Part shown: positions 34,931 through 60,049 of the stretch, in pieces
Layout: every line of letters begins with the position of its first letter
How positions within the stretch are numbered: position 1 is the stretch's first letter
Assembly (NCBI GenBank): GCA_017395045.1
Contig: JAFPWG010000029.1
Span: forward strand, 62,001-126,000
DNA length: 64,000 nt
Direction of reading: 5' to 3'
Source: Bacteroidales bacterium
GTDB taxonomy: Bacteria; Bacteroidota; Bacteroidia; Bacteroidales; UBA932
Notes under the pieces: model-generated
Database searches by the model: none
Told to the model about the DNA's origin: nothing
What the model saw: only the letters and a program-made list of their open reading frames with translations
Position numbers and translations under genes: made by a program

Positions 34931-34936
34931 AAACAA

Positions 34937-40756: not shown

Positions 40757-40781
40757 AATATTCACTGTCTAAATGGTTGTA

Positions 40782-43368: not shown

Positions 43369-43376
43369 GGTCTCTG

Positions 43377-44165
43377 CTAATAATCGTCGTTTCTCACCCC
43401 GTAGAAGAATAGTGTATGATACTGATAGCGCTCCGTATAGGCATTGTTGCCCATCACGACGATGTGCACTACGCCGTTGGAGGTACGGACGTCGGACAGG
43501 TACATCCGGTAAGCCTGGTCGCAATCCGGATTGGCCAGGCCCTTGGCATAACGTGCCAGATACGAAGGCTTTCCGGTGCGTTCGTCCACTTCCCAGTCTT
43601 CGCCGCGCTTGAAGACGACGTACACAATCTCGGGGCTGGACATCATGAAGTTGCCGTACTGGTAACCCGCTCCGGCATTTCCTTCGCCGTTCCAGGATGC
43701 GCCAGGATCGGCCGACGCCTTTTCAAGGGAAAGGTAGATCTCCTGGCTGCCGTCCAACGAAGTCAGGTACTGGGGTCCCTGCTCCTTGAGGGCTTTGGAG
43801 TCCCACCGGCCGGGGAAGATGTACATGCCCATCTGGGCCACCTCCTCGTCCTCGATATCCTCGATCTTGAACTCAGGGCCGGTACCGTTGCGGAAAGGCT
43901 TGTTCCGGCGGTAAACATACCGCATCACCGACCACTTGCTGGGGCCGACGATGGTGACGTCTTCCCCGTTGATGACATCCTTGAGGCCGGCCCGGTCGAA
44001 GAGTTGGGCGACCACGGCGGTTTCGTCGGTCTGGGCCATCCAGTCGTAGGTGTTGATGTCCATCACGTCGGTAGGATTGACCGTGCCGCCGATGGAGTCG
44101 TCCTTCCTGCACGAAACGGCGAGGACCGCTGCAGCTGCAAATACAAATAATACGATTCTTTTCAT
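43377..44165 (-). CDS. Fasciclin (FAS1)-like lipoprotein of the PUL
   Basis: The 262-residue lipoprotein (LAVSC, Cys19; start MKRIVLF) carries a partial FAS1-like signature (TYDWMAQTDETAVVAQLFDR, then DVINGEDVTIVGPSKWSVMR) in its N-terminal half and a beta-rich C-terminal half (YQYGNFMMSSPEIVYVVF, GVVHIVVMGNN). FAS1-type lipoproteins directly after susD are common in Bacteroidetes and are thought to act as surface glycan-binding proteins. It is 13 bases downstream of susD. Confidence 0.75.
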   Translation of the reverse strand: MKRIVLFVFAAAAVLAVSCRKDDSIGGTVNPTDVMDINTYDWMAQTDETAVVAQLFDRAGLKDVINGEDVTIVGPSKWSVMRYVYRRNKPFRNGTGPEFKIEDIEDEEVAQMGMYIFPGRWDSKALKEQGPQYLTSLDGSQEIYLSLEKASADPGASWNGEGNAGAGYQYGNFMMSSPEIVYVVFKRGEDWEVDERTGKPSYLARYAKGLANPDCDQAYRMYLSDVRTSNGVVHIVVMGNNAYTERYQYHTLFFYGVRNDDY

Positions 44166-44178
44166 GGCGTCCTCCTTT

Positions 44179-45810
44179 TTACCAGTTGCACTTACCATTC
44201 CAGTAGGGAGTCTGGTCGATCATGGTGTTCGTGGCGAGCACATTCGAGGAGACCGGCCAGTAGTAACCCTTCTGGCGATATTTGACGGCGCCCATCAGGT
44301 GCGCGTTGGGCCAGAAATTGTTCCGGACAAAGTCGTAGTAGAGATACCCTTCCCCGAAGAGTTCGCTGATCCGCTGCTGCATGATTTCGGAGATGATGTC
44401 GTTGCCGGCGTAGTCGGCCAGCCCGGCACGGTGGCGGATATCGTTCACGATCGGCAGGGCCTTCTCTTCCTCACCGTTCTTGTAATAGGCTTCCGCGAGG
44501 AGGAGCATCGCATCGGTGTACCGGAAAACCGGGATGTTGCATTCGGCAAAGTAAGCGATGTAGGATTCCTGCTTCCGTTCGGTGTCTTCCGTGAGCTGCG
44601 CCCATTTGGTGAGCCAGGTGACCTTCGTGCGGTCGTTGGTGGAAGACCCTTGCGTTTCGTTGAAGGGTTCGTTGTACGTGGAGTCCCACGCGCCGAAGAA
44701 GAGGTTGGGGCGGATGTCCGGGCCTCCGGTGGCGAAGTCGTACTCCGGATAGAGCTTGGACTTCTGGCTGTACGGGATCCAGTCGATACCCGCGGAGCGG
44801 TCGTGGGTCGGGTCGTTGTCCAGCGGAGTCATCTTGCAGGTAAACGCCTGGACGCCGGACCGGTCGGCCCTGTAGGACTCGTTGTTCTCCGTACCCACGT
44901 AGAGTTCGAAGACCGCTTCCGGGGACTGGCCGTTGAACATCGCCTTCACCGCGTCGGCATTCCGGTAGTCCACATAGGAGTAGCCGCCGTGATCCCGCAG
45001 GTCCTCCAGGGCGGTGATGGCATTCTTCACATAACCCAGCGGATTGGGCAGACGGTCGCGCCGGGCCAGGAAGTTCGCCCACATGTTCGCATGGGCAAAC
45101 AGTTCCAGGGCGGAACCCTTGTTGGCGCGGATCGCCCAGGTGGCTGTGCCGTAGGTGCCGTAATCGAGCAGGGACACCGCCTTTTCGGCATCGTCAAGCA
45201 CCTGGCTTGCGATCTCGAAGTCGGTGCTGCGCCCGATCAGAAGCGGAGAGTGGTCCTTGTCGATGACCTGGCTCGAGGATTCGATGGCCTCGGTGACGAG
45301 CGGGGCGTCTCCCCAGACCCTCAGGATGTTGAAATACGTCAGGGCGCGGAGGAAATAGGCCTCGCCCAGCAGGCGGTCATACGCTTCCTGGCTGCTGAAC
45401 TTTTCCACGTCCATGGCCAGGATCTTGGTAATCACCAGGTTGGCCTGGGCGACGACCTTGTAGAAGGGGCCCCAGTCGCAGGCGGAGTCCATCGATCCCC
45501 ACATCCGGTCCACGGAAGAGACATCGGAATAGTTGCCCACCGTATAATAGTTCCTGTTGGAACCTCCGGACCAGCCGTTCTTCACGAAACCGCAGGTGAC
45601 GTCGGCCCGCTGGTACCAGTTCGCGCTGGAAGACATCAGGCCGCGGTAGAGCGAGTAAACGCCGGTCACACCCACTTCCGCGTCCGCCTGAGATTCCCAG
45701 AAGGCTTCGTTGTAGATGAGGTCGATCTGGGTGGGCTCAAGGAAATCCTTGCAGGAGGTGGCGAACCCTGTCGCAACCGCTGCAGCAAGTATAATCAAGT
45801 ACTTTTTCAT
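44179..45810 (-). CDS. susD: SusD/RagB-family lipoprotein of the large PUL
   Basis: The 543-residue lipoprotein (GFATSC, Cys20) has the SusD N-domain (FLEPTQIDLIYNEAFWESQ), the LLGEAYFLRALTYFNILRVWGD TPR-type motif region near 140-161, and the C-terminal RagB part with FRYTDAMLLLAEAYYKNGE and VKYRQKGYYWPV. It is paired with the SusC gene 18 bases upstream. It would bind and deliver the PUL substrate, which should contain arabinofuranose or alpha-GlcNAc judging from the enzymes encoded. Confidence 0.92.
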   Translation of the reverse strand: MKKYLIILAAAVATGFATSCKDFLEPTQIDLIYNEAFWESQADAEVGVTGVYSLYRGLMSSSANWYQRADVTCGFVKNGWSGGSNRNYYTVGNYSDVSSVDRMWGSMDSACDWGPFYKVVAQANLVITKILAMDVEKFSSQEAYDRLLGEAYFLRALTYFNILRVWGDAPLVTEAIESSSQVIDKDHSPLLIGRSTDFEIASQVLDDAEKAVSLLDYGTYGTATWAIRANKGSALELFAHANMWANFLARRDRLPNPLGYVKNAITALEDLRDHGGYSYVDYRNADAVKAMFNGQSPEAVFELYVGTENNESYRADRSGVQAFTCKMTPLDNDPTHDRSAGIDWIPYSQKSKLYPEYDFATGGPDIRPNLFFGAWDSTYNEPFNETQGSSTNDRTKVTWLTKWAQLTEDTERKQESYIAYFAECNIPVFRYTDAMLLLAEAYYKNGEEEKALPIVNDIRHRAGLADYAGNDIISEIMQQRISELFGEGYLYYDFVRNNFWPNAHLMGAVKYRQKGYYWPVSSNVLATNTMIDQTPYWNGKCNW

Positions 45811-45828: not shown

Positions 45829-48800
45829 TTAAAACTGGATCTGTGCACCCAGCACAAAGGTCTGCGAAAGCGGGTAGCCTTCGCCGTTGTAGAAGCCCGT
45901 ACGGGTGATCTTGCGCGGATCCAGCACGGTGGAGGCCTTGAACATGGCGAGGTTGCTCACGTTCAGGTACACGTTGATGCCGCGGATGCCGAGGCTGCTC
46001 ATCCACTTGTCGGGCAGGTTGTAGGAGACGTTCACGTTGTCGATGCTCCAGTAGTCTCCCCGCTCGAGGTACATGCTGGACTTGCGGTAGATGCTGGCAC
46101 CGCCGCCTTCCCAGTAGTTCACGTACAGCATCGGATAATAGGAGTCGTCGCCCGGAGCCGACCAGAACTTGGATTCGTCGAACTTATAGAGCGCGTACTG
46201 GTAGTAATCCCAGGAGGAATCCAGACGGCTCAGCTGTTCGTAGAGGGTGGTGTTGAAGATCCAGTGACCGAAGGCGAAAGAGGAATTCACCCTGACGGAG
46301 AGGTTCTTGTACTTGAAGCCGGTGGAGATACCGCCGGTGATCTTGGGTTCGGCCGTCTTGCCTCCGATGACTTTCATGTCGCTCGCGTCGTTGCGCAGAT
46401 AGTAGTCGCCGTCCACGTCGGTATAGAGCGAGCAGCCCGGGAAGATACGTCCCTGGAGGTTGCGGGCAAGCCCCATGTCCACCTGGTAGTAGGTGAGGGC
46501 CTCACCGGTCAGGGGGTTCACCGGAAGGTCGGAGAAGGAGTCGAGGGCGCCCAGATACTCGTGCATGTAGTACTGGAACGCCGGAGCACCCTGGATGAAG
46601 GCGTAGTTTTCGTCGATGTTGATGTAGTCCTTGCCGCCGTTACCCATCTTGGCAATGACCATATGGTTGTTGCCCAGGTTGAGGGTCCAGTCCCACTGTA
46701 CCTTGCTGGTACGCGGGAAGAGATAGGCGGTGATGGAGGTTTCGAAACCGTGTCCCACCATGTCCACGAGGTTGGAGGAGATCCTGTTGAATCCCACATA
46801 GGCGGGAAGTTCCGAGGTATAGACCAGGTTGGAGATATACCGGGAATACAGGTCGAACGTCAGGTTGAGCCGCCGGCCGAAGAGTTCCAGGTCCAGACCG
46901 TAGTCCACTTCCTTGGACCAGCTCCAGGTGAGATCCTTGTTCGCGATTTTGTCGAAGTCGGACACGAGGGAGAGGTTGCCGCCGTAGGTCTTGACATCCA
47001 TCTTGTTGCTGTCCTGCCACATCACACCGGCGCCGAAGCCGTTGGGGGCGACCAGGGAGTTGTACTGGAGCAGCGGGTCGTAGTAGATCTCACCGGAGGT
47101 TCCGTACGAGGCGCGGATCTTACCGAAGTCCAGCCAGCTGGCCGTGACGGGCTTGAGCCAGGGTTCCTCGCTGAACGCCCACTGCGCCTTCACCGAAGGG
47201 AAGTTCGCCCAGCGGGTATTGGCGCCGAAACGGGAGGATCCGTCGCGGCGGTACACGCCCTCGATCTTGTAGCGGTTTCCGGCGAAGCCATAGGAAAGCA
47301 GTCCGAAGACCGAGAACATCCGGGAAGTGACGATGTCGGAGTAGGCCAGGGTATTCTCCTTGGTGTAACCCTGGATGACCTTCAGGTGGTCGGACATACC
47401 CGACTGGGCCTCGGCCCGGAGGGTGTTCAGGTTGTTCATGTTCACCTCCGTACCGAGCAGCGCGATGACCGTATGCTTCTTCTCCGGGCCGAAGGACTTG
47501 TTGAAGTTGAGCACGGAGTTCACGTTGTAGGTCGTGGTCATGCTGGCGTAGGAGTAGGCGATGCTCTTGTTGTCGGTACGCGCGATGGACGGGACCGAAT
47601 AGTCGCGCTTTCCGAAGTCCAGGACCATGGAGACCTGGTTGTCCATGGTGAGCCAATCGGCGAATTTCAGGCGCAGCGTCTCACCCACCGTAAGGTCGTG
47701 GGAGACATTCTTGTTGTAGGCGTCGCCCAGACCGCCGGACATCTGGTTCAGTTCCGTCTCCGTGCGGTAGAACAGCGAGGAAGGGAGGTTGGTCGGCGAT
47801 GTCGGCATCGCCTTCATCACGTCGCCCAGGCCACCTTCGCGGTCGATGTAGGAGTAACGCATCACCACCTCGTTGTGAATCCACTTGTTGACGTCGTTGA
47901 CCAGCGACATGGAGAGGTTCGTACGGGAAAGCCCGTAGCCTACCAGGATACCGGTCTCGTCGTAATGGGCCAGGGATACGCGGTAAGAGTTGTTCTCGGT
48001 ACCGCCTTCCATGGACAGGTCGTAATTGCCGGTCTGGCCGGTCTGGTAGAACATGTTCTGGAAGTCGTAGGCGTTGTTGAAGTACGGGTTGTACTTGTCG
48101 CTGAGCACCGACGGATAGGCGATGGCCTCCACGTAGGTGGCTCCGTTACCGCTCGTCCGCTGGTCGTACCATTCAGCGCCCTGGAAGAGGTTGGTCCAGG
48201 TCTTCTTGAGCAGGTCGATCTTGGCCTGGCGCTCCTCTTCACCCACATACACGGGGATCTTCGCAGGTTTGAGCGTGAAACCGTGGCTCACGCGGGCGGT
48301 CACACGGGCGGCTCCCGACGTTCCCTTGCGGGTAGTGATGATGACGACGCCGTTCGCACCGCGGGAACCGTAGATGGCCGTCGCGGCGGCATCCTTCAGG
48401 ATGTCGATGCTCTGGATGTCCTGCGGGTTCAGCGACGAGAGGAAGTCGTTGTCGGTCACGTTATAGCCCGCGAAATCCTGCAGGGACATGGGCACGCCGT
48501 CGATGATGTAAAGCGGATTGGAGATACCGGTGATGTCGTTGGCGGACGAAAGCGAGCTGTTGCCCCGGATGACAAGGCCGGTGTTGGAGGCTCCCGGGAC
48601 ACCGCTTCGGGTGACGGTCTGCAGGCCGGCCGCCTGGCCGGCGAGCATGGTCGCGATGGACACGGACTGGTTGTTCTCGAGGGCCTGCATGTCCACCCGC
48701 TGCACAGCCGCGGAAATGTTCCGAAGGTTCTCCTTGGTGTAGCCGACCACGACGAGTTCATCCAGGATCTGGTCCTCCGTCTTCATTTCGACGACCATGT

Positions 48801-49083
48801 TGGGGGCGGCGGTCCGTTCTACGTCGGCGTAGCCCAGGCTGGTGAAAACCAAGACGGTTCCCCGCGGGACCGTGATACTGAAAGTACCGTTGTCCCTGGC
48901 GACTCCACCCTGGGTTTGCTGCCCCTTTACATAGAATACGGCGCCGGGGACCGGGTCTCCGTTCTGGTCGATGACCGTTCCCTTGGCCGTCACCTGCTTC
49001 TGGGCGTCCACCCTCAAGGTCGGCGCCAGGAGGAGGACGATGCCCAGAAGGAAGGTTCCCATTCTGTGATGTTTAGTAGACAT
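45829..49083 (-). CDS. susC: SusC/RagA-family TonB-dependent transporter of the large PUL
   Basis: The 1084-residue protein has a signal peptide (ending near RVDAQ), carboxypeptidase-regulatory-like domain (TAKGTVIDQNGDPVPGAVFY), plug domain (TMLAGQAAGLQTVTRSG, ATAIYGSRGANGVVIITTR) and a barrel ending FVLGAQIQF. No STN domain is present. Only 16 bases separate it from the SusE-like gene upstream, so it has no room for its own promoter and depends on the transcript starting near 57.2 kb or on an internal promoter I cannot see. Confidence 0.93.
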   Translation of the reverse strand: MSTKHHRMGTFLLGIVLLLAPTLRVDAQKQVTAKGTVIDQNGDPVPGAVFYVKGQQTQGGVARDNGTFSITVPRGTVLVFTSLGYADVERTAAPNMVVEMKTEDQILDELVVVGYTKENLRNISAAVQRVDMQALENNQSVSIATMLAGQAAGLQTVTRSGVPGASNTGLVIRGNSSLSSANDITGISNPLYIIDGVPMSLQDFAGYNVTDNDFLSSLNPQDIQSIDILKDAAATAIYGSRGANGVVIITTRKGTSGAARVTARVSHGFTLKPAKIPVYVGEEERQAKIDLLKKTWTNLFQGAEWYDQRTSGNGATYVEAIAYPSVLSDKYNPYFNNAYDFQNMFYQTGQTGNYDLSMEGGTENNSYRVSLAHYDETGILVGYGLSRTNLSMSLVNDVNKWIHNEVVMRYSYIDREGGLGDVMKAMPTSPTNLPSSLFYRTETELNQMSGGLGDAYNKNVSHDLTVGETLRLKFADWLTMDNQVSMVLDFGKRDYSVPSIARTDNKSIAYSYASMTTTYNVNSVLNFNKSFGPEKKHTVIALLGTEVNMNNLNTLRAEAQSGMSDHLKVIQGYTKENTLAYSDIVTSRMFSVFGLLSYGFAGNRYKIEGVYRRDGSSRFGANTRWANFPSVKAQWAFSEEPWLKPVTASWLDFGKIRASYGTSGEIYYDPLLQYNSLVAPNGFGAGVMWQDSNKMDVKTYGGNLSLVSDFDKIANKDLTWSWSKEVDYGLDLELFGRRLNLTFDLYSRYISNLVYTSELPAYVGFNRISSNLVDMVGHGFETSITAYLFPRTSKVQWDWTLNLGNNHMVIAKMGNGGKDYINIDENYAFIQGAPAFQYYMHEYLGALDSFSDLPVNPLTGEALTYYQVDMGLARNLQGRIFPGCSLYTDVDGDYYLRNDASDMKVIGGKTAEPKITGGISTGFKYKNLSVRVNSSFAFGHWIFNTTLYEQLSRLDSSWDYYQYALYKFDESKFWSAPGDDSYYPMLYVNYWEGGGASIYRKSSMYLERGDYWSIDNVNVSYNLPDKWMSSLGIRGINVYLNVSNLAMFKASTVLDPRKITRTGFYNGEGYPLSQTFVLGAQIQF

Positions 49084-49099
49084 AGCGTTCTATATGGTT

Positions 49100-50641
49100 T
49101 TACATTAATTCCCTTTGCAGACGTTTTTCATATTCCACCGCACCGTAATAATCGAACAGGTAGTACCACCAGTTGTTCAGATGGAGGTCGTTGCTGTCGT
49201 GGGTGTTGATTCCCTTGAAGTGCGGGATGTGCTCATAGAACCATTGCATGTAGCCGTACTGCGAACTCTTCCACTCCGAACTGTTCACTTTCCGGGCAAG
49301 GTCCTTGTTGTCCTCGATATAAGGGTAGTGTTCCCATTCGTCCGCGAACGTAAGGATATAGGAAGACTCCCCGTAGCCGTAGTTGACGTCCGTGTTGCAG
49401 GGCGAGTGGCAGGTGCCGATGTGGGCATAGCCCTTTTCGCCGACCTTCTCATAGGCGGTGCCGTGCGAGAAGAACTTGTCAAAGGTGCGCAGGTCCTTCT
49501 TCAGGCCGGAGAAGTGGCTGTCGCTGGGGAACCAGTGGAAGTTCTCGTTGTAATAGAGATGGCTCATGATGGATTCGGTCCGGTGCGCGAAACTGTGCAG
49601 GGCCAGGTCCACCGTCCGCTCGTAGTTGCAGAACATCACGCACACCAGGTTCTTGTTATGGGCGTGATAGCGGTCGGTACCGTAGTCGATGGGGCCGCTG
49701 TTGCACCAGAATCCGCCCTGGCCCAGGAAACGGGATTCGTTCATCTTGCAGGCCGGATGGTTGTACACCCACACTTCGTTCACCTCTCCCTTGTCGATCA
49801 TTTCGGAAATGCCGAAATGGTCCAGCACGCCCGGGTAATCGTACTCAAGGCCTACTCCGTCTATGTTCTTGTGATCCTTGATGAAATCGTTGCAGATGGC
49901 GTAAGGGGTGACATACCTCCTTTCGGACGTCTCGGTTTCCCCCTCGGCATAGTAGCTGAACAGCTGGTTGTCCAGCGAGAATTCGTGGACGATCTGGATG
50001 TCCACCGCGCCGTGGGAATACGCTTCGAAGTCGCGGGCGTATTCCTGCATCTGGCTATGGGGATTGTTGTAGCCGAAGATCTCATGGATGCGCTTGCCGT
50101 TCCACGGGTCGGAGCTGTTTTCGAAGTTGGTGTAATAGGGGTCTTCATAAATGACGGCCACCTTCACGACGATCGCTTCCTCCACAGGTCCCCAGTCGGG
50201 TTTTTCTTCTGCCAGACGGGTTACCGTGACCTTGCGGACGTTCGTGGTATATTCCGTATGCGCCACTTCCTTATAGGGAAGCACGCTCCACCAGATGTCC
50301 GCCGTGGCTTCGGAAGCGACTCCCAGTTCCTGCAGGTAGCCGTCCAGGGTCTTGCCGTCCAGGGCCTGGGACGTGCTCCGGATACTGACGATATAAGGAT
50401 TCGACAGGTCCTGGGACTTGCTCAGCACCAGCTTGTAGTTGGTCTGGCCGGGGACTGCCTCCCAGGAGAACGTGTAGGTTCCGGCGGCGTCAAGCGCCCA
50501 GCTGGCGGCGTCCGCCGGCTCCGTGAGCTTCAGGTCGTACGTCTTGGTTTCTACCTGTTCCTCCGGTTCATCGATGACCTGGGGACCCGCGCAAGCCAAC
50601 GCGAGAACCGGGATCAAACTGTAAACAATGGATCTTTTCAT
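49100..50641 (-). CDS. SusE-like lipoprotein with uncharacterised HSFAHR domain (copy A)
   Basis: The 513-residue lipoprotein (ALAC, Cys17) has an Ig-like SusE-type N-domain (about 35-145: LTEPADAASWALDAAGTYTF, WEAVPGQTNYKLVLSKS), then a conserved domain (about 158-500). Its centre reads NYERTVDLALHSFAHR (339-354) followed by TESIM, giving Glu341, His349, His353 and Glu356 in a metalloprotease-like pattern. Other shared motifs are WVYNHPACKMNESRF, GGFWCNSGPID, HIGTCHSPCNTD and NNWWYYLFDYYG. I know similar domains only as uncharacterised secreted bacterial proteins. It is co-transcribed with SusCD and glycosidases. Role at the cell surface is probable, and peptidase or glycan-processing activity is inference. 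Confidence 0.8.
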   Translation of the reverse strand: MKRSIVYSLIPVLALACAGPQVIDEPEEQVETKTYDLKLTEPADAASWALDAAGTYTFSWEAVPGQTNYKLVLSKSQDLSNPYIVSIRSTSQALDGKTLDGYLQELGVASEATADIWWSVLPYKEVAHTEYTTNVRKVTVTRLAEEKPDWGPVEEAIVVKVAVIYEDPYYTNFENSSDPWNGKRIHEIFGYNNPHSQMQEYARDFEAYSHGAVDIQIVHEFSLDNQLFSYYAEGETETSERRYVTPYAICNDFIKDHKNIDGVGLEYDYPGVLDHFGISEMIDKGEVNEVWVYNHPACKMNESRFLGQGGFWCNSGPIDYGTDRYHAHNKNLVCVMFCNYERTVDLALHSFAHRTESIMSHLYYNENFHWFPSDSHFSGLKKDLRTFDKFFSHGTAYEKVGEKGYAHIGTCHSPCNTDVNYGYGESSYILTFADEWEHYPYIEDNKDLARKVNSSEWKSSQYGYMQWFYEHIPHFKGINTHDSNDLHLNNWWYYLFDYYGAVEYEKRLQRELM

Positions 50642-50647
50642 AACGTC

Positions 50648-52288
50648 TTACTTCCCGATTTGTGCGCGGAGCTGGGCTTCGTAGTCCATGGCTCCGTAGT
50701 AGTCAAACAGATAATGCCACCAGTTGTTCAGGTGCAGGTCCCCTTCGTCAAAGGTGTTGATCCCCTGGAAATGGGGCACATGCCTGTAGAACCATTTCAT
50801 ATAGCCGTACTGGTAGTCCTTGGGATCCTTCCACTCGGCGCAGGTGACCTTGCGGGCATCGGCCTTGATGCCGTGGACGTAAGGGTAGTTGTCCCACTCG
50901 TCGGCGAAAGTGTAGATGGCCGCGGGGTCTGCGTATCCGTAGTTGCCGTCCGTGTTGCACGGGGAGTGACAGGTGCCGATATGTGCATAGCCGCTTTCCC
51001 CGATTCTGTCATAGGCGCTTCCATGCGCGAAGAACATGTCGAACTTGTTCAGGTCACGGTCCGTTCCCTTGAACCAGTCGCGTTCGTACACATAGGTGAA
51101 CACCCCGTATTTGTTATAGTCACGCCAGCTCTTGGTCTGGGTGTTATAATTCTGGTAATAGACCTGGCTCATGATGGATTCGGTCCGGTGCGCAAAGCTG
51201 TGAAGGGCCAGGTCCACCGTACGTTCATAGTTGCAGAACATCACGCACACCAGTTTCTTGTTGTGGGCGTAGTTCCGGCCCACGCCGAAGTCGATCGGCA
51301 TGGAATTGCACCAGAAGCCGCCCTTGCCCATGAAACGGGACTCGTTCATCTTGCAGGCGGGGTGGTTGTACACCCAGACTTCGTTGATGGTTCCCTCGTC
51401 CACCTTGGCGGAAAGTCCGAAGGCATCCATCATCGCCACGTAATCGTAGTCGAGCGTCTTTCCGTCGATGTCGATGTGCGCCTTCCCGGTTTCCGGGTCC
51501 GGGTCCAGGTAGCGCTTGTACAGCAGCTGCGGCGTCATGTACTCGCGCGTGGAGTTGGCCGTCGAGGACGTGTAGCAGAACATCCGCTGCGAATCGTGCT
51601 CCTCCACGATCTCGATGTCCACGGCGCCATGGGAGACCTCCTCGAAGGCAGCGGCATACTCCCGCATCTGTGCCCAGGGGTCGTTCCAGTGCTCGATCTC
51701 GTGGATGCGCTTTCCGTTGCGGGGGTCGGACGGGTTCGCCGGGTCGTTGAAGACCGGATCCTCATAGACCACGGCCACCTTCACCCTGATAGGGTCGGTG
51801 ACGGGTTCTGAAACGCCGTCTTCCTTGAGGGTCGTAACCTTCATGCGCCGCACCTGGGGAGTGTACTTGACCCCTTCGGTCCACGGACCCACGCTCCACC
51901 AGACATCGGCCGTCTCCGCCGAAGCGAAACCGATCTCCTTGAGGGCCGCCGCGAAGTCGCGCCAGCTCACCGACGCCTTCGCCCGGTCGACCACGATGGA
52001 GGTCTTTTCGGCCATGTCGGACGTGCGGCTGAAATACAGGCGATAGAAGTTCTGACCTTCCATCGGGTTCCACTCGAAGACATAATCCTCGTTGTACCAC
52101 AGGTCCAAGGTATAGCCGTCGGCGGGTGCCACGAGGGCGATTTCCGGACCGGGAGTGTCCGGATTCTGCTCCGGCGTCTGCTCTTCGGGGTCCTTGCCAT
52201 CCGGCGGATTATCGTCCGTCTTCGTACAGGAACCGTTCAGCAGGAAAGGACATCCCAGCAGAAGCAGTATCAAGATCCTTCTCTTCAT
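50648..52288 (-). CDS. SusE-like lipoprotein with uncharacterised HSFAHR domain (copy B)
   Basis: The 546-residue lipoprotein (NGSC, Cys21, then an acidic Pro/Glu/Asp linker) is a paralogue of the next gene downstream, 6 bases away. The SusE-like N-domain (about 48-152: ALVAPADGYTLDLWYNEDYV) precedes the same C-domain. All candidate active residues are conserved: Glu355, His363, His367 and Glu370 in NYERTVDLALHSFAHR plus TESIM. The cysteines of ACKMNESRF, FWCNS and GTCHSPCNTD are also kept. The N-domains have diverged far more than the C-domains, which suggests the two copies share a chemistry but meet different ligands. Confidence 0.8.
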   Translation of the reverse strand: MKRRILILLLLGCPFLLNGSCTKTDDNPPDGKDPEEQTPEQNPDTPGPEIALVAPADGYTLDLWYNEDYVFEWNPMEGQNFYRLYFSRTSDMAEKTSIVVDRAKASVSWRDFAAALKEIGFASAETADVWWSVGPWTEGVKYTPQVRRMKVTTLKEDGVSEPVTDPIRVKVAVVYEDPVFNDPANPSDPRNGKRIHEIEHWNDPWAQMREYAAAFEEVSHGAVDIEIVEEHDSQRMFCYTSSTANSTREYMTPQLLYKRYLDPDPETGKAHIDIDGKTLDYDYVAMMDAFGLSAKVDEGTINEVWVYNHPACKMNESRFMGKGGFWCNSMPIDFGVGRNYAHNKKLVCVMFCNYERTVDLALHSFAHRTESIMSQVYYQNYNTQTKSWRDYNKYGVFTYVYERDWFKGTDRDLNKFDMFFAHGSAYDRIGESGYAHIGTCHSPCNTDGNYGYADPAAIYTFADEWDNYPYVHGIKADARKVTCAEWKDPKDYQYGYMKWFYRHVPHFQGINTFDEGDLHLNNWWHYLFDYYGAMDYEAQLRAQIGK

Positions 52289-52290
52289 AA

Positions 52291-54303
52291 TCAGTAGGTT
52301 ACGGGGAATTCAGTGATTCTTAGCGTCGTACATCCGTAGGGGATGAGGGTGATTTCCTGTACCGGGCCCAGTTCGGCCTGATACTGGTCGCTGTAAGGCA
52401 GCGGCCCGGTCATGCCTCCGTACAGCTCCCAGCCTTCGAGCGTACGCGCGCGGGCCTTGATCTGTAACGGAGCGTTGTCCACATTCCAGGGATAGCCTTC
52501 GACGGGGGTTTCGACGAGCGTGAACGCCGAAGCCGGTGCGTCTCCCTCCACATCTTCGCGAAGCAGGGCGTAATTCCAGGCATCGGGACTGTGCACTTCG
52601 TAGTACCAGTCTCCGTAGCGGGTACCGAACTTGCCGTCATTGGCCACCTTGGTCCAATTCTCCTGCATCTTGAGGGCAAAGACCAGCGGGCCGCGCTCCA
52701 CGGCGGCGGAGTTCTCATACCAGCGGGAAACCTTGATCTGCAGCGGCAGGCTGAGTTCAATCACGTCGCCCTGGTTCCATTCGCGGTTCACGACCAGCGT
52801 CTCCCCTCCCTTGCCGGAGGCCGCTTCGCCGCCGTTCACTTTCACCGCGCCGGTTTCGCACCAGCCGGGGATGCGCAGATGCAGCGGGAAGCCGGTCGGC
52901 CCGGCCAGTTCCTCAATCTTGAACAGGACCGTCTCCGAGAAGGGATATCCGCCCGATTCGGCGATGGTTACCTCTGCGCCGCCGGCCACTTTCGCAGTAA
53001 CCGTGCAGGGTCCGTAATACATGGCGGCCAGGCCGTTGTCGTCGGAGGCGTACCAGAGGTCCCGGACGAATTTCGGCCAGCCCTGGTGCATGTTGGCCGT
53101 GCAGCAGGGGAAGCCGGTAAGCGGGCCGAACGTGCCTTCGGTACCGTTATAGCTGGTCATGAAATTGCGCATCTTCCGCGAAACCTCCACCTGGTTGAGC
53201 TGCTGGTAGTACTGGCGCGCGTCAAAGTCGTCCGTGGCCTGGGTGGGAAGGGCGTTGTAGGCCACTTTCTCCAACCAGTCCGCCAGGTCCGTACGGCCGG
53301 TGATCTCGATCATCCTTTCCAGGGAGAACATCAGTTCCACGGCCGAACAGAACTCGGAGCCCTGGGTGGGAGAGCCGCTGTGCAGCAGCTCGTCGGAACC
53401 GTACATCCCGTTGGGCCAGCCCAGCTGCTTCATGAGGTCTTCGTAGCCGGTAACCACGGCGTCCACATACGACTTGTCGCCGTTTCCCTGGTATTCGATG
53501 ACCGGAGCCTTGAAGCCCTGGGCGAGGTTCACGCAGTGCAGGGCGTAGCGTGTGAAAAGAGTGCTGTGGTCCGAAAGGCGGTCCTTCCAGGGCGCCGTCT
53601 GTTCCGCGAGCAGTTTGCCCAGATCCAGGAGGAAGGCGTCACCGGTGATGTTGTACAGCCAGTACACGACCATGATATTGTCGGCCCCGCGCTCCACTGC
53701 CCAATAGCTCCACTGCCCCAGCGGCTCTTCCGGGAGCCTTTCCAGCTGATAGTGGAAGTATTTGGTCATGAAGTCGATGACGCGTTCGTCCCCCGTCGCG
53801 TCGTAATACTGCTGGAGGAACTTGAGCACGACGATGCGGGGCCACCAGTCGTGGGTGCGGTCGCGCTGCAGGCCGTCCACGTTGGGGAGGTCCTCCCCAG
53901 GGCCGAAGAAGCCGTCTTCCTGCTGGCTGGCGAGGGTCCATTCAATCCAGCGCTGCGCCTTGTCCTTCAGGGCCTGGTCGTCCAGGATGTAGGCGAGGGG
54001 CACCAGGCCGTCGATCCAATAGGGGCCGCGTTCCCACTTGTCCCCGTCGCCGCCCAGCCAGCCGTTGCGGTCGCCCATGATGTTGGGTACGATTCCGTCC
54101 AGATGGCCGGTCATGCCGGATGCCTGGCGGAGGAGTTGGTCGCGAAGCCATCCGTCGGGCTTCACGGCTCCCAGCGGCAGTTCCACATACGGCTTGTGGG
54201 CCAGCGGAGAGCGGTTATTCCGATAGAGTCCCTCTTCTTCTCGGGGGGATGCGCACGAAAAAAGCACAGCAGCGGAAAGTGCCATGATCATCAAACGCTT
54301 CAT
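52291..54303 (-). CDS. GH127-superfamily (DUF1680) glycosidase lipoprotein
   Basis: The 670-residue lipoprotein (LFSC, Cys17) belongs to the DUF1680 superfamily but differs from the GH127 gene at 34.9 kb. It keeps a Glu-x-Cys (Glu317, Cys319 in GSEFCSAVE) and a Cys pair (Cys400, Cys401 in GFPCCTANMHQGWPKF), the residues used for Zn2+ and catalysis in GH127/GH146. N-terminal motifs are GYLRDQL-like (GWLRDQLLRQASG) and ERGPYWIDGLVPLAY. It is probably a beta-L-arabinofuranosidase or related pentosidase. The exact GH family is uncertain. Its ATG overlaps the stop of the upstream gene (TAATG). Confidence 0.85.
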   Translation of the reverse strand: MKRLMIMALSAAVLFSCASPREEEGLYRNNRSPLAHKPYVELPLGAVKPDGWLRDQLLRQASGMTGHLDGIVPNIMGDRNGWLGGDGDKWERGPYWIDGLVPLAYILDDQALKDKAQRWIEWTLASQQEDGFFGPGEDLPNVDGLQRDRTHDWWPRIVVLKFLQQYYDATGDERVIDFMTKYFHYQLERLPEEPLGQWSYWAVERGADNIMVVYWLYNITGDAFLLDLGKLLAEQTAPWKDRLSDHSTLFTRYALHCVNLAQGFKAPVIEYQGNGDKSYVDAVVTGYEDLMKQLGWPNGMYGSDELLHSGSPTQGSEFCSAVELMFSLERMIEITGRTDLADWLEKVAYNALPTQATDDFDARQYYQQLNQVEVSRKMRNFMTSYNGTEGTFGPLTGFPCCTANMHQGWPKFVRDLWYASDDNGLAAMYYGPCTVTAKVAGGAEVTIAESGGYPFSETVLFKIEELAGPTGFPLHLRIPGWCETGAVKVNGGEAASGKGGETLVVNREWNQGDVIELSLPLQIKVSRWYENSAAVERGPLVFALKMQENWTKVANDGKFGTRYGDWYYEVHSPDAWNYALLREDVEGDAPASAFTLVETPVEGYPWNVDNAPLQIKARARTLEGWELYGGMTGPLPYSDQYQAELGPVQEITLIPYGCTTLRITEFPVTY

Positions 54304-57209
54304 TAGTCTATGGTTATTTTAGTGTTATTCTGCAAACGGATGGAGCGGGTTTCGCCGGCGTACGTGAAGGTCAGGTCCTTCGGCGCACCGGTAGCGGTAA
54401 ATTCAAAGGTGACGGCCTCCCCGTCCTTCTTCATGTCGAACCCGATCGTGTCCTTGCCCATGCGCAGGCCGCGCACCCGAAGGCTGTCCCATGCGTCGGG
54501 AAGCTGCGGGGCCAGCGTGCAGGTGCCGTCCAGCGCGTTGCAGGTCCAGCCCAGCATGCCGCGGATGGCGGGACCGGTAACCCCGGTTTCGGACCAGCAC
54601 TGGAAAGCCGTGATCCCGCCGCTCCGGTATGCGTTCCCCCGGAGCACCTCCGGAACACGTCCGTGGGTGGAGCCGCTGTAACACAGGAGGTTGCCCATGA
54701 GATGGCCGAAAGCCGCCTCCCGGAGTCCCGTGCAATACTCGGCCAGCGCCACCGAACCGGTGAGCAGCGGCCAGATGTTGCTTTCGTCATAGGGCCCGAC
54801 ATTCTCCTCATTCCGCGGATCGCCGCTTTGGCGCACGCCCCAGGGCTGGGTGAAATTGGAACCGGAGTACCACTTTACCGTACTCAAGGCCTTTTCGGGA
54901 TTGGTCACGCCCAGCCAGACCGGGAAGGACTCCAGGGCCAGGAGCGAAGTGGTGAAGGAGCCGTCGTTGTAGATGCCATAATTATAGTATCCCGCAGGAT
55001 TCCAGAACCTGTCCAGGGCAGCCTTGACCGTCTCGGATTCCTCCGCCCACGACCGGGCCTCCTCGGAGTGGCCGTCCAGGCCCGCCAGCCAGGCACCGTC
55101 GGAGAGGGCCCTCGCCCAGATGCCGCACAGGTAGAATTCCGTATTGTCCGCAAAATAGTCGCCGCCTTCCAGCCAGCCGTGGCCCACGTGACGGATTTCA
55201 ATGAAATGGTCCCCGTCCGTATCGGTAGAGAAGCAGAACTCCATGGCTTTGTACACATTGGGCATGTGCGCCCGTACAAAGTCCTCGTCGCCCGTGGCCC
55301 GGAGGTAGTCGGCCATCAGGATCACATAGAGCGGGGTTGCGTCGGATGCGTCAAAATGGTCGGACCCGCTGGTGGTGAGTTCGTGGAAGATGGGGCCGTC
55401 TTCGCCCTGGAAGTCCGACAGGACCTCGAGCGTGGCCTTGACCGCGGCGAAATCGCCCATCCCCAAGTATGCAAAACCGGCCAGCTCGGAGTCGCGGCCG
55501 AAGTACCAGGCGTAGCCCGGACGGCCGCTCACGCGGTGTCCGCCACCCCATCCCCGCAGGGAGGAAGCATAGCCGGCCATGAGGGCCGCTCCGATTCCGG
55601 GCGTTTCGGCCAGGAACTGTCCGGCCGACACGGTGGCCCAGCGGTAACCTTCGTTGAAAGCAGGATCGGGCGTTTCGATGCTGACGGTCTCTTCCAGATA
55701 ACGCTGCCAGTGCCTGGCGTTGCGGACATACATCTCCCGGGGCGCCTGGATGGCCTTCGCATATGCGCCCAGGGCCGCATCCATTCCCTCGCTGCCCGCC
55801 GCCATGACCAGGTCGCAGGCCTGCTTTCCGGAAGCGTCCAGGGAGAAGGAGGCATTGAGCTGGAGACGGTCCCCGGCAGCGCCCTCGGAGAGAAGCTTGC
55901 CAGGGATGTTGGCGCCGACGAGGGAGACAAACTCTCCGTCGCCCGCCGTCACGGCATACAGGCCGGCCCCGGAGGACCAGCCGCCGCAGATGGAGCCCAG
56001 TGCGTCGGAGTCATAGGGCCACATGAAACGCATGTTGGAGGAGAAGCCCACCACGAGACTGTCCACCGCGCCTTCCCACTGGTAATGGGCGACGACGGCC
56101 GGCGTTTCCGGGTCGGCGGTGATGATCTCCATCACCTGCACATCCCCGGCGGTATAGGTGCGGCAGATGCTGTGGGCCCTGAGCGTGACGCCGGCGGCCT
56201 CCCTGAGCGGGTAAAGACTCCCGCCGGCAGCCACCGAAACGTTCATGTCCTTCAGGGACATCACAGGGTGCGTCCATATTTCCTTGATGCCGCCGCGCTC
56301 GTCGCATACGGTCATGCAGCGGCGGGAAGGGACGACAATCTCCTGGGCGGCGGGAGCAAAGGCCAGGGAATCCCCGCCTTCCCCGGCGGGATTCCAGCGC
56401 GAGGGTCCGGCGCCGCGGGCGACAGGACGGTCCGCCCCCGGTACAGGCCGGCCCGTTTCCACGACGGCGGGACCGTACTGCCAGTATCTTTCCGGGCTTT
56501 CGCATTTGCCGCCCGTGAGCCAGTTCACCACATTCGCCGTGAAACGGCTCAGAATCTTGGTGTTATAGTTCGGACGGTCATAATACAGGAAGGCACCGAT
56601 GGAGAGCAGGCTGCCCTTCCCCACCGGCTGCACCCAGACCACCTTCTGGTCCGGATGATAGAAAATGAGTTCCCAGAGGGTGGCGGCTATGCGGGTACCT
56701 TCCCGCTGCGGAGCGTTGGCTCCGGAATAACCCAGCACACGGCACTTGTTATCTTCGTGGCCGTGCCAGACATAGGCACCGCCGTGCATCCCGTCGAACA
56801 GGGGATGGCTGCGGAAAGAATGGTAGCCCATCTTGCGACCGAAACCGGAATCCTCCGCATCCCACGTACTCGCTTCCACCGGGTTGGGTTCCAGTCCCCA
56901 GGCATTCCCCAGACGGACGGCGTCCATGGAAAGGACCACCTTCCCGCCCTTCTCCATATAACGGATCAATGCGGGGCCAGCCGCTACTTCCCGGGGCGAA
57001 AGAGCCGACGTGTCCGGGCGGTGCCACCACACCAGGTCATAGGCGCCGAGGGGAGCGTCGGGAGCGATTTCCTCACACTGGAAACCGCGCTCCTCCAACA
57101 TGTTTCGGAGACCGCTTTCAGAAGAGATGAGTCCTATCCGGACAGGAGAGGAGCAGGCCGAGAACAGGGCGACGGCCAAAAAAGTGTTGATTAATCTGTG
57201 GCTAAGCAT
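54303..57209 (-). CDS. (alpha/alpha)6-barrel glycosidase fused to a GATase-like N-domain
   Basis: The 968-residue lipoprotein (FSAC, Cys19) starts at the ATG with complement 57207-57209. A TTG four codons upstream is rejected. Domains: a Rossmann/GATase-1-like region (about 22-235: YDLVWWHRPDTS, GGKVVLSMDAVRLG, GKGSLLSIGAFLYY), a beta-sandwich (about 265-490) and an (alpha/alpha)6 barrel (about 500-900) with YAWYFGRDSELAGFAYLG, DGDHFIEIRHVGHGWLEGGD and YDESNIWPLLTGSVALAEY. The barrel resembles glycogen-debranching/GH78/GH63-type catalytic domains with an acid in WLEGGD. Substrate unknown. It is the first gene of the PUL transcription unit. Confidence 0.8.
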   Translation of the reverse strand: MLSHRLINTFLAVALFSACSSPVRIGLISSESGLRNMLEERGFQCEEIAPDAPLGAYDLVWWHRPDTSALSPREVAAGPALIRYMEKGGKVVLSMDAVRLGNAWGLEPNPVEASTWDAEDSGFGRKMGYHSFRSHPLFDGMHGGAYVWHGHEDNKCRVLGYSGANAPQREGTRIAATLWELIFYHPDQKVVWVQPVGKGSLLSIGAFLYYDRPNYNTKILSRFTANVVNWLTGGKCESPERYWQYGPAVVETGRPVPGADRPVARGAGPSRWNPAGEGGDSLAFAPAAQEIVVPSRRCMTVCDERGGIKEIWTHPVMSLKDMNVSVAAGGSLYPLREAAGVTLRAHSICRTYTAGDVQVMEIITADPETPAVVAHYQWEGAVDSLVVGFSSNMRFMWPYDSDALGSICGGWSSGAGLYAVTAGDGEFVSLVGANIPGKLLSEGAAGDRLQLNASFSLDASGKQACDLVMAAGSEGMDAALGAYAKAIQAPREMYVRNARHWQRYLEETVSIETPDPAFNEGYRWATVSAGQFLAETPGIGAALMAGYASSLRGWGGGHRVSGRPGYAWYFGRDSELAGFAYLGMGDFAAVKATLEVLSDFQGEDGPIFHELTTSGSDHFDASDATPLYVILMADYLRATGDEDFVRAHMPNVYKAMEFCFSTDTDGDHFIEIRHVGHGWLEGGDYFADNTEFYLCGIWARALSDGAWLAGLDGHSEEARSWAEESETVKAALDRFWNPAGYYNYGIYNDGSFTTSLLALESFPVWLGVTNPEKALSTVKWYSGSNFTQPWGVRQSGDPRNEENVGPYDESNIWPLLTGSVALAEYCTGLREAAFGHLMGNLLCYSGSTHGRVPEVLRGNAYRSGGITAFQCWSETGVTGPAIRGMLGWTCNALDGTCTLAPQLPDAWDSLRVRGLRMGKDTIGFDMKKDGEAVTFEFTATGAPKDLTFTYAGETRSIRLQNNTKITID

Positions 57210-57232
57210 AAGGGCATGCAATTAGTCTAAGG

Positions 57233-57280: not shown

Positions 57281-57313
57281 TTTGTCACTTTTGATTCAAT
57301 TTGATTATCTTTG
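57281..57313 (+). promoter_or_regulatory. Promoter of the propeller-AraC regulator gene
   Basis: TTTG (57281-57284), a 21-base spacer and TATCTTTG (57306-57313) fit the consensus. The expected start is about 57319-57320, coinciding with the ATG at 57320. Confidence 0.65.
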
Positions 57314-57319
57314 CTGGAA

Positions 57320-60049
57320 ATGAAGAGAATACACATAGGACTGTCCTGCCTCCTGCTGTCCCTGGCAGGGAGCATCTCCAAGGGCCAGCCGTACACCCTC
57401 CGCAGCCTGGAAGTGGAGGACGGCCTCTCGCAGAACATGGTTTACTGCGTCATCCAGGACCGGAGCGACTATATCTGGATCGGAACGCAGAACGGGCTAA
57501 ACCGGTATGACGGGAACACTTTCCGGATTTACAAGAAAGGCGACGGAAGCGGACTGTCCCAGGATGCAGTATGCTCGTTGCGGGAAGACGCGGAGGGAAA
57601 CATCTGGGTCGGCACCCTGTTCGGCCTGCACATCTTCTCTCCGGAAAGCGAAACCTTCCGGGACATTCCCCTGCACGACGCCTCCGGGAAACTCGTGGAA
57701 GGTATCGTCCGCGATATTGAATTCGGCCCGGAAGGCGAAACCTATGCAGCCATCGCGGACACATGCCTGATCCGGATCGAAAACGATTTCTCCGAAAGCC
57801 AGATCGACCTGGGCGAGGCCGGACGCGGCATCCACATCCGCGACCTGCAGACAGACGGATACGGGAACCTGTGGATCGCCTCCTATGCCAGCGGTTTACT
57901 GGAGCTTCTGGGAGACGACCGCGACCAGGTAAAACAGTATCCTTACCTGGGAAAGACCGAGCGGCGGTTTACTAAAGTCGTTCCCCTCGACAACGAGACC
58001 CTCCTGGTGGGATCGGTCGACTACGGCGTCCTGAAATTCGACCTCCGCAGCAAGTCATTCTCCCAGATGGAGGGATTCGGCAGCAAGGACGTCTATTTCG
58101 TCCACGATATCCTCGCAGCATCCGACGGGCGCATCTGGGTAGGGGCGGAGAACGGTGCGCACGTCAAGGACGCATCCGGCATCAGCCGGCTCACCCACAC
58201 CAGCGACATGTCCAGTTCCCTCTCGGACAACGCCGTCTTCTGTCTGATGGAGGACCGCGACGGAGGCGTCTGGATCGGAACCTATTTCGGCGGCGTGAAC
58301 TACTACTCGCCCTATTCTTCGATGTTCCGGAAATACTTCCCCGTCCCGGGGCCCAACACGCTGCACGGAAAGAACATCAGCGAGTTCTGCCAGGCACCGG
58401 ACGGCAGTATCTGGATCGGCACCGAGGATTCCGGGCTGCATCGGTTCAACCCCGAAGACGGCAGCTTCCAGAACGGTTTCCTCCCGGCCGGAAACATCCA
58501 CGCCCTGGACATCATCGACGGCCGGCTCTGGGCCGGTTCTTACGGGGAAGGCCTCTTCGTGCTGGACCCCGGCAAACGCGGTTTCCGCCATTACAGCCTT
58601 GCCTCGGAAGGCGGCAGCCCCGGTGAAAACAGCGTTTACTCCATCCTCCGGGACCTCTCCGGGCAGGTGTGGATCGGGACGGAAAGCGGTTTATTCCAGT
58701 ATGATGCTTCGAGGGACCGGTTCTCCAAAGTCGCCGATAACCTGATCTCCCGGCAGGTGAACGATATCCTGCAGGACTTCCACGGCTCGCTGTGGTTCGC
58801 CACCATGGGCCAGGGCGTCTTCCGTTTGGACCCGGACACCGGCACCTGGGAGAACCTGGACGGGATGAGCCCCTATGTCACCTGCCTGATGGAGGATTCG
58901 GCCCATGATATCTGGCTTGGCACGGAGGACGCGGGAATCATCTATTACAATCATTCCACCAAGCAGGTCGAAAGAAGGTGGACCGAAGAGGACGGCCTTC
59001 CCAACAACATGGTTTACATGCTGCTCGAGGACGACTCCGGCGGAATCTGGGGAAGCACGAACCACGGCCTCTTCCACATTTCCCCGCAGCGGGACAGGGT
59101 GCTGTACTATGACCACCGCAGCGGACTCACCGGCGACCAGTTCAACTTCAAGTCGGGGCTGAAGGCCTCCGACGGGACGTTCTATTTCGGCGGGGTGAAG
59201 GGGTTCGTCAGCTTCCGGCCGGAATGGTTCAACCATCCTCCGAAGCCGTCGAAAATCGTGTTCAGCCGCTACTTCGTCTATAATTCAGAGGTCCAGCCGG
59301 GACCCCGGGACGAGATTGTCCTGCGGCCGGACCAGAAGATGTTCAGCGTGGGTTTCGCCGACCTGGATTATTCCACGTCGGGCATCAAAACTTACCAGTA
59401 CAGGCTGCTGGGGCATGATAAAGAATGGATCGACATCGAGCAGAGCCACTTGCTCAGTTTCTCCAACCTTCCGTCGGGGCACTACCGGCTGGAAGTCCGG
59501 GCAAATCCGCTCAATTCCTTCCCGGGAGAGCCCGTACAGGGCATCGACATCCGGATCCTGCAGCCCTGGTACCGCACGGTCCCGGCCATTGTCGTGGAAA
59601 TCCTCCTGATCCTGCTCCTGGCGCTTTGGGGAATCCGTCTCCTGATCGGGAAAATACGCAAGCTCAACATGAAAGCGGTCCAGGCCGAATTGGAGCGCCG
59701 CCGGCTGGCCGCCTCTCCGGAGAATCTCAAGTTCATGGACCGGGTCACCAACGTCATGGAGGCGAATCTGGCCAATCCTGCCTTCAACGTGAATATGATG
59801 GCGGACGAGCTCCATATGAGCCGGTCCACCCTCTACCGGAAAATGAAGCTCGTCACCGATTCGGCCGGAAACGACTACATCCGGCAATACCGCCTGGACA
59901 AGGCGGCGAAACTGCTGGCGGAGAAGTCCTGGCAAGTGTCCGAAATCGCCACCATGACAGGCTTCAACTCGGTTTCCTACTTCTCCCGTTGTTTCCGCGC
60001 CCGGTTCGGCGTCTCTCCCAAGGACTACACGGAGCCCTCAAAGCAATAG
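57320..60049 (+). CDS. Membrane-bound propeller-Y_Y_Y-AraC regulator lacking kinase and receiver domains
   Basis: The 909-residue protein starts at the ATG 57320. It has a signal peptide, about a dozen Reg_prop propeller repeats (YIWIGTQNGL, NIWVGTLFGL, GVWIGTYFGG, QVWIGTESGL, DIWLGTEDAG), a Y_Y_Y domain (about 690-750), one membrane helix (about 753-776), a short linker (KAVQAELERRR) and a C-terminal AraC domain (about 810-905: MMADELHMSRSTLYRKMK, VSEIATMTGFNSVSYFSRCF). Classical HTCS proteins place a histidine kinase and a receiver between helix and AraC, and neither is present. It would sense a sugar in the periplasm and bind DNA from the membrane, probably activating the divergent PUL. 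Confidence 0.9.
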   Translation: MKRIHIGLSCLLLSLAGSISKGQPYTLRSLEVEDGLSQNMVYCVIQDRSDYIWIGTQNGLNRYDGNTFRIYKKGDGSGLSQDAVCSLREDAEGNIWVGTLFGLHIFSPESETFRDIPLHDASGKLVEGIVRDIEFGPEGETYAAIADTCLIRIENDFSESQIDLGEAGRGIHIRDLQTDGYGNLWIASYASGLLELLGDDRDQVKQYPYLGKTERRFTKVVPLDNETLLVGSVDYGVLKFDLRSKSFSQMEGFGSKDVYFVHDILAASDGRIWVGAENGAHVKDASGISRLTHTSDMSSSLSDNAVFCLMEDRDGGVWIGTYFGGVNYYSPYSSMFRKYFPVPGPNTLHGKNISEFCQAPDGSIWIGTEDSGLHRFNPEDGSFQNGFLPAGNIHALDIIDGRLWAGSYGEGLFVLDPGKRGFRHYSLASEGGSPGENSVYSILRDLSGQVWIGTESGLFQYDASRDRFSKVADNLISRQVNDILQDFHGSLWFATMGQGVFRLDPDTGTWENLDGMSPYVTCLMEDSAHDIWLGTEDAGIIYYNHSTKQVERRWTEEDGLPNNMVYMLLEDDSGGIWGSTNHGLFHISPQRDRVLYYDHRSGLTGDQFNFKSGLKASDGTFYFGGVKGFVSFRPEWFNHPPKPSKIVFSRYFVYNSEVQPGPRDEIVLRPDQKMFSVGFADLDYSTSGIKTYQYRLLGHDKEWIDIEQSHLLSFSNLPSGHYRLEVRANPLNSFPGEPVQGIDIRILQPWYRTVPAIVVEILLILLLALWGIRLLIGKIRKLNMKAVQAELERRRLAASPENLKFMDRVTNVMEANLANPAFNVNMMADELHMSRSTLYRKMKLVTDSAGNDYIRQYRLDKAAKLLAEKSWQVSEIATMTGFNSVSYFSRCFRARFGVSPKDYTEPSKQ

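What the first reader, a model, noticed from the sequence alone, without database searches (positions are those of the whole stretch)
49100..52288. Tandem SusE-like lipoproteins carrying an uncharacterised HSFAHR domain, a candidate new surface enzyme of a PUL
Seen: two adjacent paralogues share a domain of about 340 residues with strict conservation of Glu-x7-HSFAHR-x-Glu (Glu341/His349/His353/Glu356 in copy A), five cysteines and a Trp-rich end, while their SusE-like N-domains have diverged. They precede SusC in the same transcript. Known: SusE-type domains bind glycans at the surface. HxxxH plus nearby Glu residues are often metal ligands. Inference: a surface metallo-enzyme, perhaps a peptidase or a glycoprotein-directed hydrolase, works beside the SusCD pair. 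The duplication suggests two substrates or two steps.
Basis: partly seen in the sequence, partly recalled or inferred. Interest (0 to 1): 0.85.

Follow-up and report, generated by a model that had tools for sequence, protein, structure and literature searches.

The report
Unclassified surface domain in a sugar-degradation cluster
Two neighbouring surface lipoproteins of a Bacteroidales bacterium carry a conserved domain that matches no family in the libraries searched, and because distant relatives of it often sit beside, or in one case are fused to, sugar-cutting enzymes, it is probably a new glycan-cleaving enzyme rather than the peptidase-like metalloenzyme first suggested.

Summary
Six other genomes keep both copies; both are under purifying selection. 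The domain has no credible match in Pfam, NCBIfam or the PDB. I found it in 15 more Bacteroidota genomes; of 17 proteins scanned there only one has SusE. Across 29 sequences 19 positions are invariant, including D268, E289, E302, N314, R342, H353, E356, H412 and N416. His349 is not: it is His in 20 and Glu in 9. The cysteines are clade-specific.

In 10 of 15 genomes the gene lies near a GH127, a GH172 or a large GH116/GDE-like hydrolase, in one fused to the last. These partners suggest an arabinofuranoside-rich glycan. Best reading: a new secreted or surface glycan-cleaving enzyme family, with SusE as spacer. No relation to M64 metallopeptidases, the one family compared, was detectable.

The parts
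49100..50641 (-). Copy A (P0001, 513 aa): lipoprotein, SusE-like N-domain (about 31-120) plus HSFAHR domain (about 155-513)
50648..52288 (-). Copy B (P0002, 546 aa): paralogue of copy A, all 19 family-invariant residues kept
52291..54303 (-). GH127-type hydrolase (P0004), recurrent partner
   Evidence: Pfam PF07944 E=3.5e-31; best PDB 4qjy GH127 E=2.8e-18; linked in other lineages
54303..57221 (-). 972-aa hydrolase-like protein, (alpha/alpha)6 type, with DUF4960-like N-part (P0003), recurrent partner; fused to the HSFAHR domain in G022
   Evidence: GH116/GDE/rhamnosidase Pfam hits, all under the cut-off; PDB GH116 and GDE chains at 4.1e-6 and 9.6e-6
45829..49083 (-). SusC-like TonB-dependent transporter
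44179..45810 (-). SusD-like lipoprotein
43377..44198 (-). Lipoprotein with sub-threshold fasciclin match, conserved next to SusD in the G561 and G268 clusters
42241..43524 (-). Lipoprotein with DUF5007 match, conserved in the G561 and G268 clusters; the listed start overlaps the gene before by 148 bases or more and is probably too far upstream
34937..36772 (-). Second GH127 of the same gene run; homologue 57% identical in the G828 cluster
32840..34936 (-). GH89 (NAGLU) alpha-N-acetylglucosaminidase; homologue 38% identical in the G387 cluster
57311..60049 (+). Divergent regulator (Reg_prop, Y_Y_Y, AraC-type HTH)

Best explanation
The C-terminal domain belongs to an unclassified family of exported Bacteroidota enzymes that cleave a glycan, most likely one rich in arabinofuranose. 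In this genome two divergent copies were mounted on a SusE-like spacer and lipid anchor at the cell surface; they would cut the polymer so that the SusC/SusD pair imports the pieces and the GH127 and (alpha/alpha)6-type hydrolases of the same gene run trim them. Catalysis would use invariant carboxylates (among D268, E289, E302, E356) with H353 and H412; position 349, His or Glu in every member, would lie in the same site. Shown: family, conservation, gene linkage, one fusion. Read from sequence by eye: export signals. Inferred: enzymatic activity, substrate, surface location, the roles of the residues.
For: 19 invariant columns in 29 sequences down to 17-22% identity to copy A, many of them charged, His or Asn, which I judge more typical of an active site than of a binding face. 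Position 349 takes only H or E, with at least 4 changes on the tree. Near GH127, GH172 or the 972-aa hydrolase in 10 of 15 genomes outside the window and its six close relatives, and fused to the 972-aa hydrolase in G022. In 197 genomes of G410's class, 6 of 7 genomes with the domain have a full-length 972-aa homologue (E below 1e-130) against 11 of 190 without, Fisher p=1.1e-6; at the search's own limit of 1e-20 it is 7 of 7 against 19 of 190, p=3.2e-7. The domain occurs alone, with a type IX secretion tail with or without Big_2, or behind SusE. GH172 and GH116 enzymes are published exo-D-arabinofuranosidases (PMC10509167, PMC10115798, passages read).
Against: No activity or structure. 5 of 15 genomes (G585, G233, G687 on a 9-kb contig, G1247, G836) show no such partner close by; G585 has only a 26-27% relative of the 972-aa protein near its divergent copy. 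The window genome has no GH172. The SusE-like N-domain is usual for glycan-binding, not catalytic, proteins. Helical periodicity of conservation at 339-361 was not significant (977 of 5000 shuffles reached it). The 972-aa partner is only weakly GH116-like. The Fisher tests do not correct for relatedness, and the full-length limit was chosen after seeing the list.
Confidence: 0.52

Rival explanations
1. A new non-catalytic glycan-binding module: the protein is a surface glycan-binding protein in which the usual C-terminal binding domains of SusE are replaced by this fold, and its conserved Trp and polar residues form the binding site.
For: SusE-like N-domain and lipobox; invariant Trp residues W291, W436, W491, W492; linkage to SusC/SusD.
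Against: SusE was found in 1 of 17 proteins scanned outside the window group; other lipoproteins follow SusD in the slot where binding proteins are usual (recalled); many invariant carboxylate, His and Asn positions; self-standing forms of about 330-370 aa.
Confidence: 0.25
2. A surface metallo-enzyme as the first reader proposed (peptidase or glycoprotein-directed), with [H/E]349, H353 and E356 or H412 as metal ligands.
For: Position 349 is only His or Glu, an exchange that metal sites tolerate (recalled); H353, E356, H412 are 29 of 29; a zincin-like order of strand and motif is seen by eye only.
Against: Profile comparison with Peptidase M64 gives 0.6% probability and aligns other parts; the HExxH Glu is absent (position 350 is S, N or D); no recurring library hit, peptidase or other (one single member touches a proline iminopeptidase model at E=0.004); partners are glycosidases. 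Other metallopeptidase families were not compared.
Confidence: 0.17
3. An enzyme that removes a non-sugar substituent (for example an esterase) from the same glycan.
For: Same linkage evidence; sulfatase-modifying-factor-like domains occur in neighbouring genes of G559, G268 and G561.
Against: No library hit to an esterase; esterase motifs were not searched for systematically.
Confidence: 0.06

Closest known systems
SusE (PF14292) surface glycan-binding lipoproteins
   Same: N-terminal domain of both copies, lipoprotein signal, SusC/SusD linkage
   Different: C-terminal two thirds match no listed family; 16 of 17 scanned relatives outside the window group lack SusE
D-arabinan gene clusters with GH172, GH116 and GH183 (PMC10115798, PMC10509167, passages)
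   Same: GH172 lies within about 7 kb of the domain in G268, G410, G368, G559 and G387; the 972-aa partner is weakly GH116-like
   Different: GH183 (PF13810) is in 3 of 16 genomes and not near the domain in any; the window genome shows neither GH172 nor GH183; GH127 is added
GH127 beta-L-arabinofuranosidase systems (HypBA1 type)
   Same: GH127 is the immediate neighbour in the window and lies close in 6 of 15 other genomes
   Different: Different proteins; the domain itself is not GH127
Peptidase M64 (PF09471) zincins
   Same: A short HxFGH-like string, seen by eye
   Different: No profile relation; no HExxH

Membership tests
SusE (PF14292) | Pfam SusE domain over the curated cut-off | tested here: inconclusive
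   Copy A 37.1 bits over 25.2; copy B 23.2 bits, under it; G828 relative 34.4 bits. Covers only the N-terminal part.
Zincin metallopeptidases | HExxH motif | tested here: not met
   Motif is [H/E][S/N/D]xxH in 29 of 29
Peptidase M64 (PF09471) | Profile similarity over the catalytic domain | tested here: not met
   hhalign probability 0.6% against 11 M64 proteins
Any named glycoside hydrolase family | Match to a Pfam, NCBIfam or PDB sequence model | tested here: not met
   No family hit by more than 1 of 29 members, best E 0.004; PDB only cytochrome c3 chance matches. CAZy itself not available here.
Glycoside hydrolase (as a function) | Hydrolysis of a glycosidic bond | not testable with these tools
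   Needs purified protein
Metalloenzyme | Bound metal at clustered His/Glu side chains | not testable with these tools

The most novel reading that the evidence does not exclude
The domain founds a new family of glycoside hydrolases with an unfamiliar active site built on [H/E]xxxHxxE plus two distant invariant Glu and a HxPxN loop, specialised for an arabinofuranose-containing glycan whose degradation no studied gene cluster yet explains, and the two tandem copies cut two different linkages.
Probability: 0.3. Interest if true: 0.72.

Novelty: new variant of a known kind. Interest (0 to 1): 0.52.

Why it matters
A protein family without an entry in the libraries searched, yet fixed in sequence at 19 positions and repeatedly linked to three arabinofuranoside-type hydrolase families, is a ready candidate for a new carbohydrate-active enzyme family. 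It gives a short list of residues and one fused natural protein with which to test it, and may open an unexplained glycan used by Bacteroidota.

Tried and rejected
Peptidase reading: 12 M64 proteins read, 11 of them aligned and compared by profile, no relation. Only this metallopeptidase family was compared. Helix test: conservation periodicity over 339-361 was not above shuffles, so it lends no support to a shared helix face for 349/353/356. PDB profile hits to cytochrome c3 (E 0.035 and worse) rest on about 25 columns around HxPxNGxxDY and were judged chance. Single-member hits, best NCBIfam E=0.004 (proline iminopeptidase) and 0.0088 (a beta-lactamase model), each in 1 of 29 members, were judged chance. 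Hit L012 (G095, E=1.4e-4) was dropped on reading: its frame looks LamG-like to me and has neither an H[R/Q]xE nor an HxPxN string. The distant group L024-L027 and L044 was kept, because a profile of those five finds the window's copies back at E=2.5e-13 and 7.2e-7. No relatives in plasmids, phages or viral contigs. Papers: six motif strings gave 0 papers; GH127 with GH172 and 'unknown function' gave 0; searches on DUF4960 or PULs (10 of 2,132 listed), SusE fusions (11 listed), GH127/GH89 (5 listed) and new GH families (11 listed) gave listings in whose titles and abstract openings I saw no mention of this domain. Only passages of PMC10509167 and PMC10115798 were read. Remarks on lipoboxes, zincins, the SGBP slot and the meaning of the isolate name RUG are recalled.

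Full report
Observation. They align over 512 columns at 51% identity. The C-domain is 62.1% identical (220 of 354) and the N-domain 30.7% (39 of 127). Pfam finds only SusE, at residues 31-120 of copy A (E=3.7e-9) and 40-133 of copy B (E=8.3e-5, under the cut-off). The C-domain has no Pfam or NCBIfam match up to E=1, and copy A only two PDB chains at E=0.42 and 1.1. Six C-domain cysteines are shared by the copies, not five.

The pair is real. 6 of 6 relatives found in genome contigs (L003-L008, 62-83% identical; one titled water-buffalo rumen, five with RUG isolate names, which I recall as rumen genomes) carry both copies. dN/dS of the window against L003, L004 and L006 is 0.075-0.153 for copy A and 0.061-0.148 for copy B, with dS above 1; dN is higher in the N-part than in the C-part. 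In the tree, copies A of the window, L003, L006 and L008 group together, weakly (83/73), and so do copies B (99/98), while the single copy of G828 lies outside both (100/100); so the duplication probably came before these genomes parted and after the split from G828.

The family. Whole-genome searches gave it in 5 of 295 genomes of the order, own genome included and one of the five dropped, 8 of 395 of the phylum, own included, 7 of 197 of G410's class, 3 of 149 of the family, own included, and 2 of 395 of the class, own included. These draws overlap. Beyond the window and L003-L008 that makes 15 genomes: G561, G410, G368, G559, G442, G387, G585, G268, G022, G233, G774, G687, G828, G1247 and G836. 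It is thus rare. A profile of the five most distant members finds the window's copies back at 2.5e-13 and 7.2e-7. No family is hit by more than one of 29 members (best single E=0.004), and the 29-sequence profile finds no credible PDB chain.

Architecture. Of the 21 members outside the window group, 17 were scanned whole by Pfam; L020, L025 and the truncated L026 and L042 were not. SusE occurs in 1 of 17, the G828 protein (34.4 bits). A type IX secretion tail occurs in 8 of 17 (L015, L016, L017, L018, L019, L022, L041, L045), with a Big_2 hit in six of these eight, over its cut-off in four. Forms of about 330-370 aa with little more than an N-terminal signal and the domain are L009, L011, L014, L020, L023, L024 and L025. 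In L010/L036 the domain is fused to a homologue of the window's 972-aa hydrolase; the contig ends within that frame.

Residues. In 29 aligned members 19 columns are invariant: D268 E289 W291 E302 S303 N314 R342 H353 E356 G409 H412 P414 N416 Y421 W436 P440 P473 W491 W492 (copy A numbering). Position 349 needs at least four His/Glu changes on a tree built without that column. Such a two-letter alternation suggests a constrained site and is compatible with a metal ligand, but does not prove one. The seven C-domain cysteine columns of copy A hold Cys in 3 to 10 of 29. The alignment was made by MAFFT and not curated by hand.

Neighbourhood. The window genes from 57221 down to 32840 lie on one strand with gaps under 70 bases or overlaps: 972-aa hydrolase, GH127, copy B, copy A, SusC, SusD, five further proteins, CotH, a second GH127 and GH89. 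In the 15 other genomes, looking at the stretches fetched and, for the 972-aa protein and GH172, at whole genomes: the 972-aa homologue is close by or fused in 7 (G828, G368, G559, G442, G387, G774, G022), GH127 in 6 (G561, G442, G387, G774, G268, G828), GH172 in 5 (G268, G410, G368, G559, G387), any of these in 10 of 15; none in G585, G233, G687, G1247 and G836. G585 has a 26-27% relative of the 972-aa protein about 4 kb from its divergent copy, not counted. In G368, G559 and G387 the linked GH172 is the only one found in the genome. In G561 and G268 SusC, SusD and both lipoproteins after SusD are conserved too. In 197 genomes of G410's class, 6 of 7 domain-bearing genomes and 11 of 190 others have a full-length 972-aa homologue (E below 1e-130, one counted from two pieces); at E up to 1e-20 it is 7 of 7 and 19 of 190 (p=1.1e-6 and 3.2e-7; relatedness not corrected).

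Two divergent paralogues side by side recur: in G410 (L029, 8140-10197 and 10204-12276) and G559 (L031, 7673-9721 and 9742-10755), and two in one region in G442 and G387.

Function. GH172 and a GH116 subfamily are published exo-alpha- and exo-beta-D-arabinofuranosidases (PMC10509167, passages; PMC10115798, passages); GH127 is named beta-L-arabinofuranosidase in the PDB and Pfam entries hit here. The 972-aa protein is only weakly GH116/GDE-like. The common theme is furanose-type arabinose, so I propose that the domain cleaves a glycan of that kind outside the cell. GH183, the endo-enzyme of D-arabinan clusters, is in 3 of 16 of these genomes and never near the domain, so the domain may fill the endo role; this last step is conjecture.

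Limits. No relation to M64 was found; other metallopeptidases were not compared. Presence outside Bacteroidota was not tested.

Noticed in passing
window 57311-60049 (+): The divergent regulator has propeller, Y_Y_Y and AraC-type HTH parts but no histidine kinase or receiver hit at E up to 0.01; an ORF beside the G828 cluster that starts alike is 1335 aa (L048:4928-8932).
   Followed up: no
window 54303-57221 (-): The 972-aa protein has a DUF4960-like N-part and an (alpha/alpha)6-type C-part whose hits all stay under the Pfam cut-offs; it may itself be an unassigned hydrolase family, with a second, weaker type (25-29%) in many genomes.
   Followed up: partly
window 43377-44198 and 42241-43524 (-): Two lipoproteins after SusD are conserved in the G561 and G268 clusters, with a sub-threshold fasciclin and a DUF5007 match.
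   Followed up: partly
window 38214-39779 and 39788-40765 (-): Two proteins without Pfam hits, kept in L004-L007 at 54-68% identity.
   Followed up: no
window 36774-38144 (-): A CotH-type protein inside the sugar-degradation gene run; CotH also lies in the G410 cluster, L029:4505-8089.
   Followed up: no
L040:3701-6481 and L031:3-989: Proteins with type IX secretion tails and a HExxH string near the domain's clusters, without a Pfam catalytic hit.
   Followed up: no
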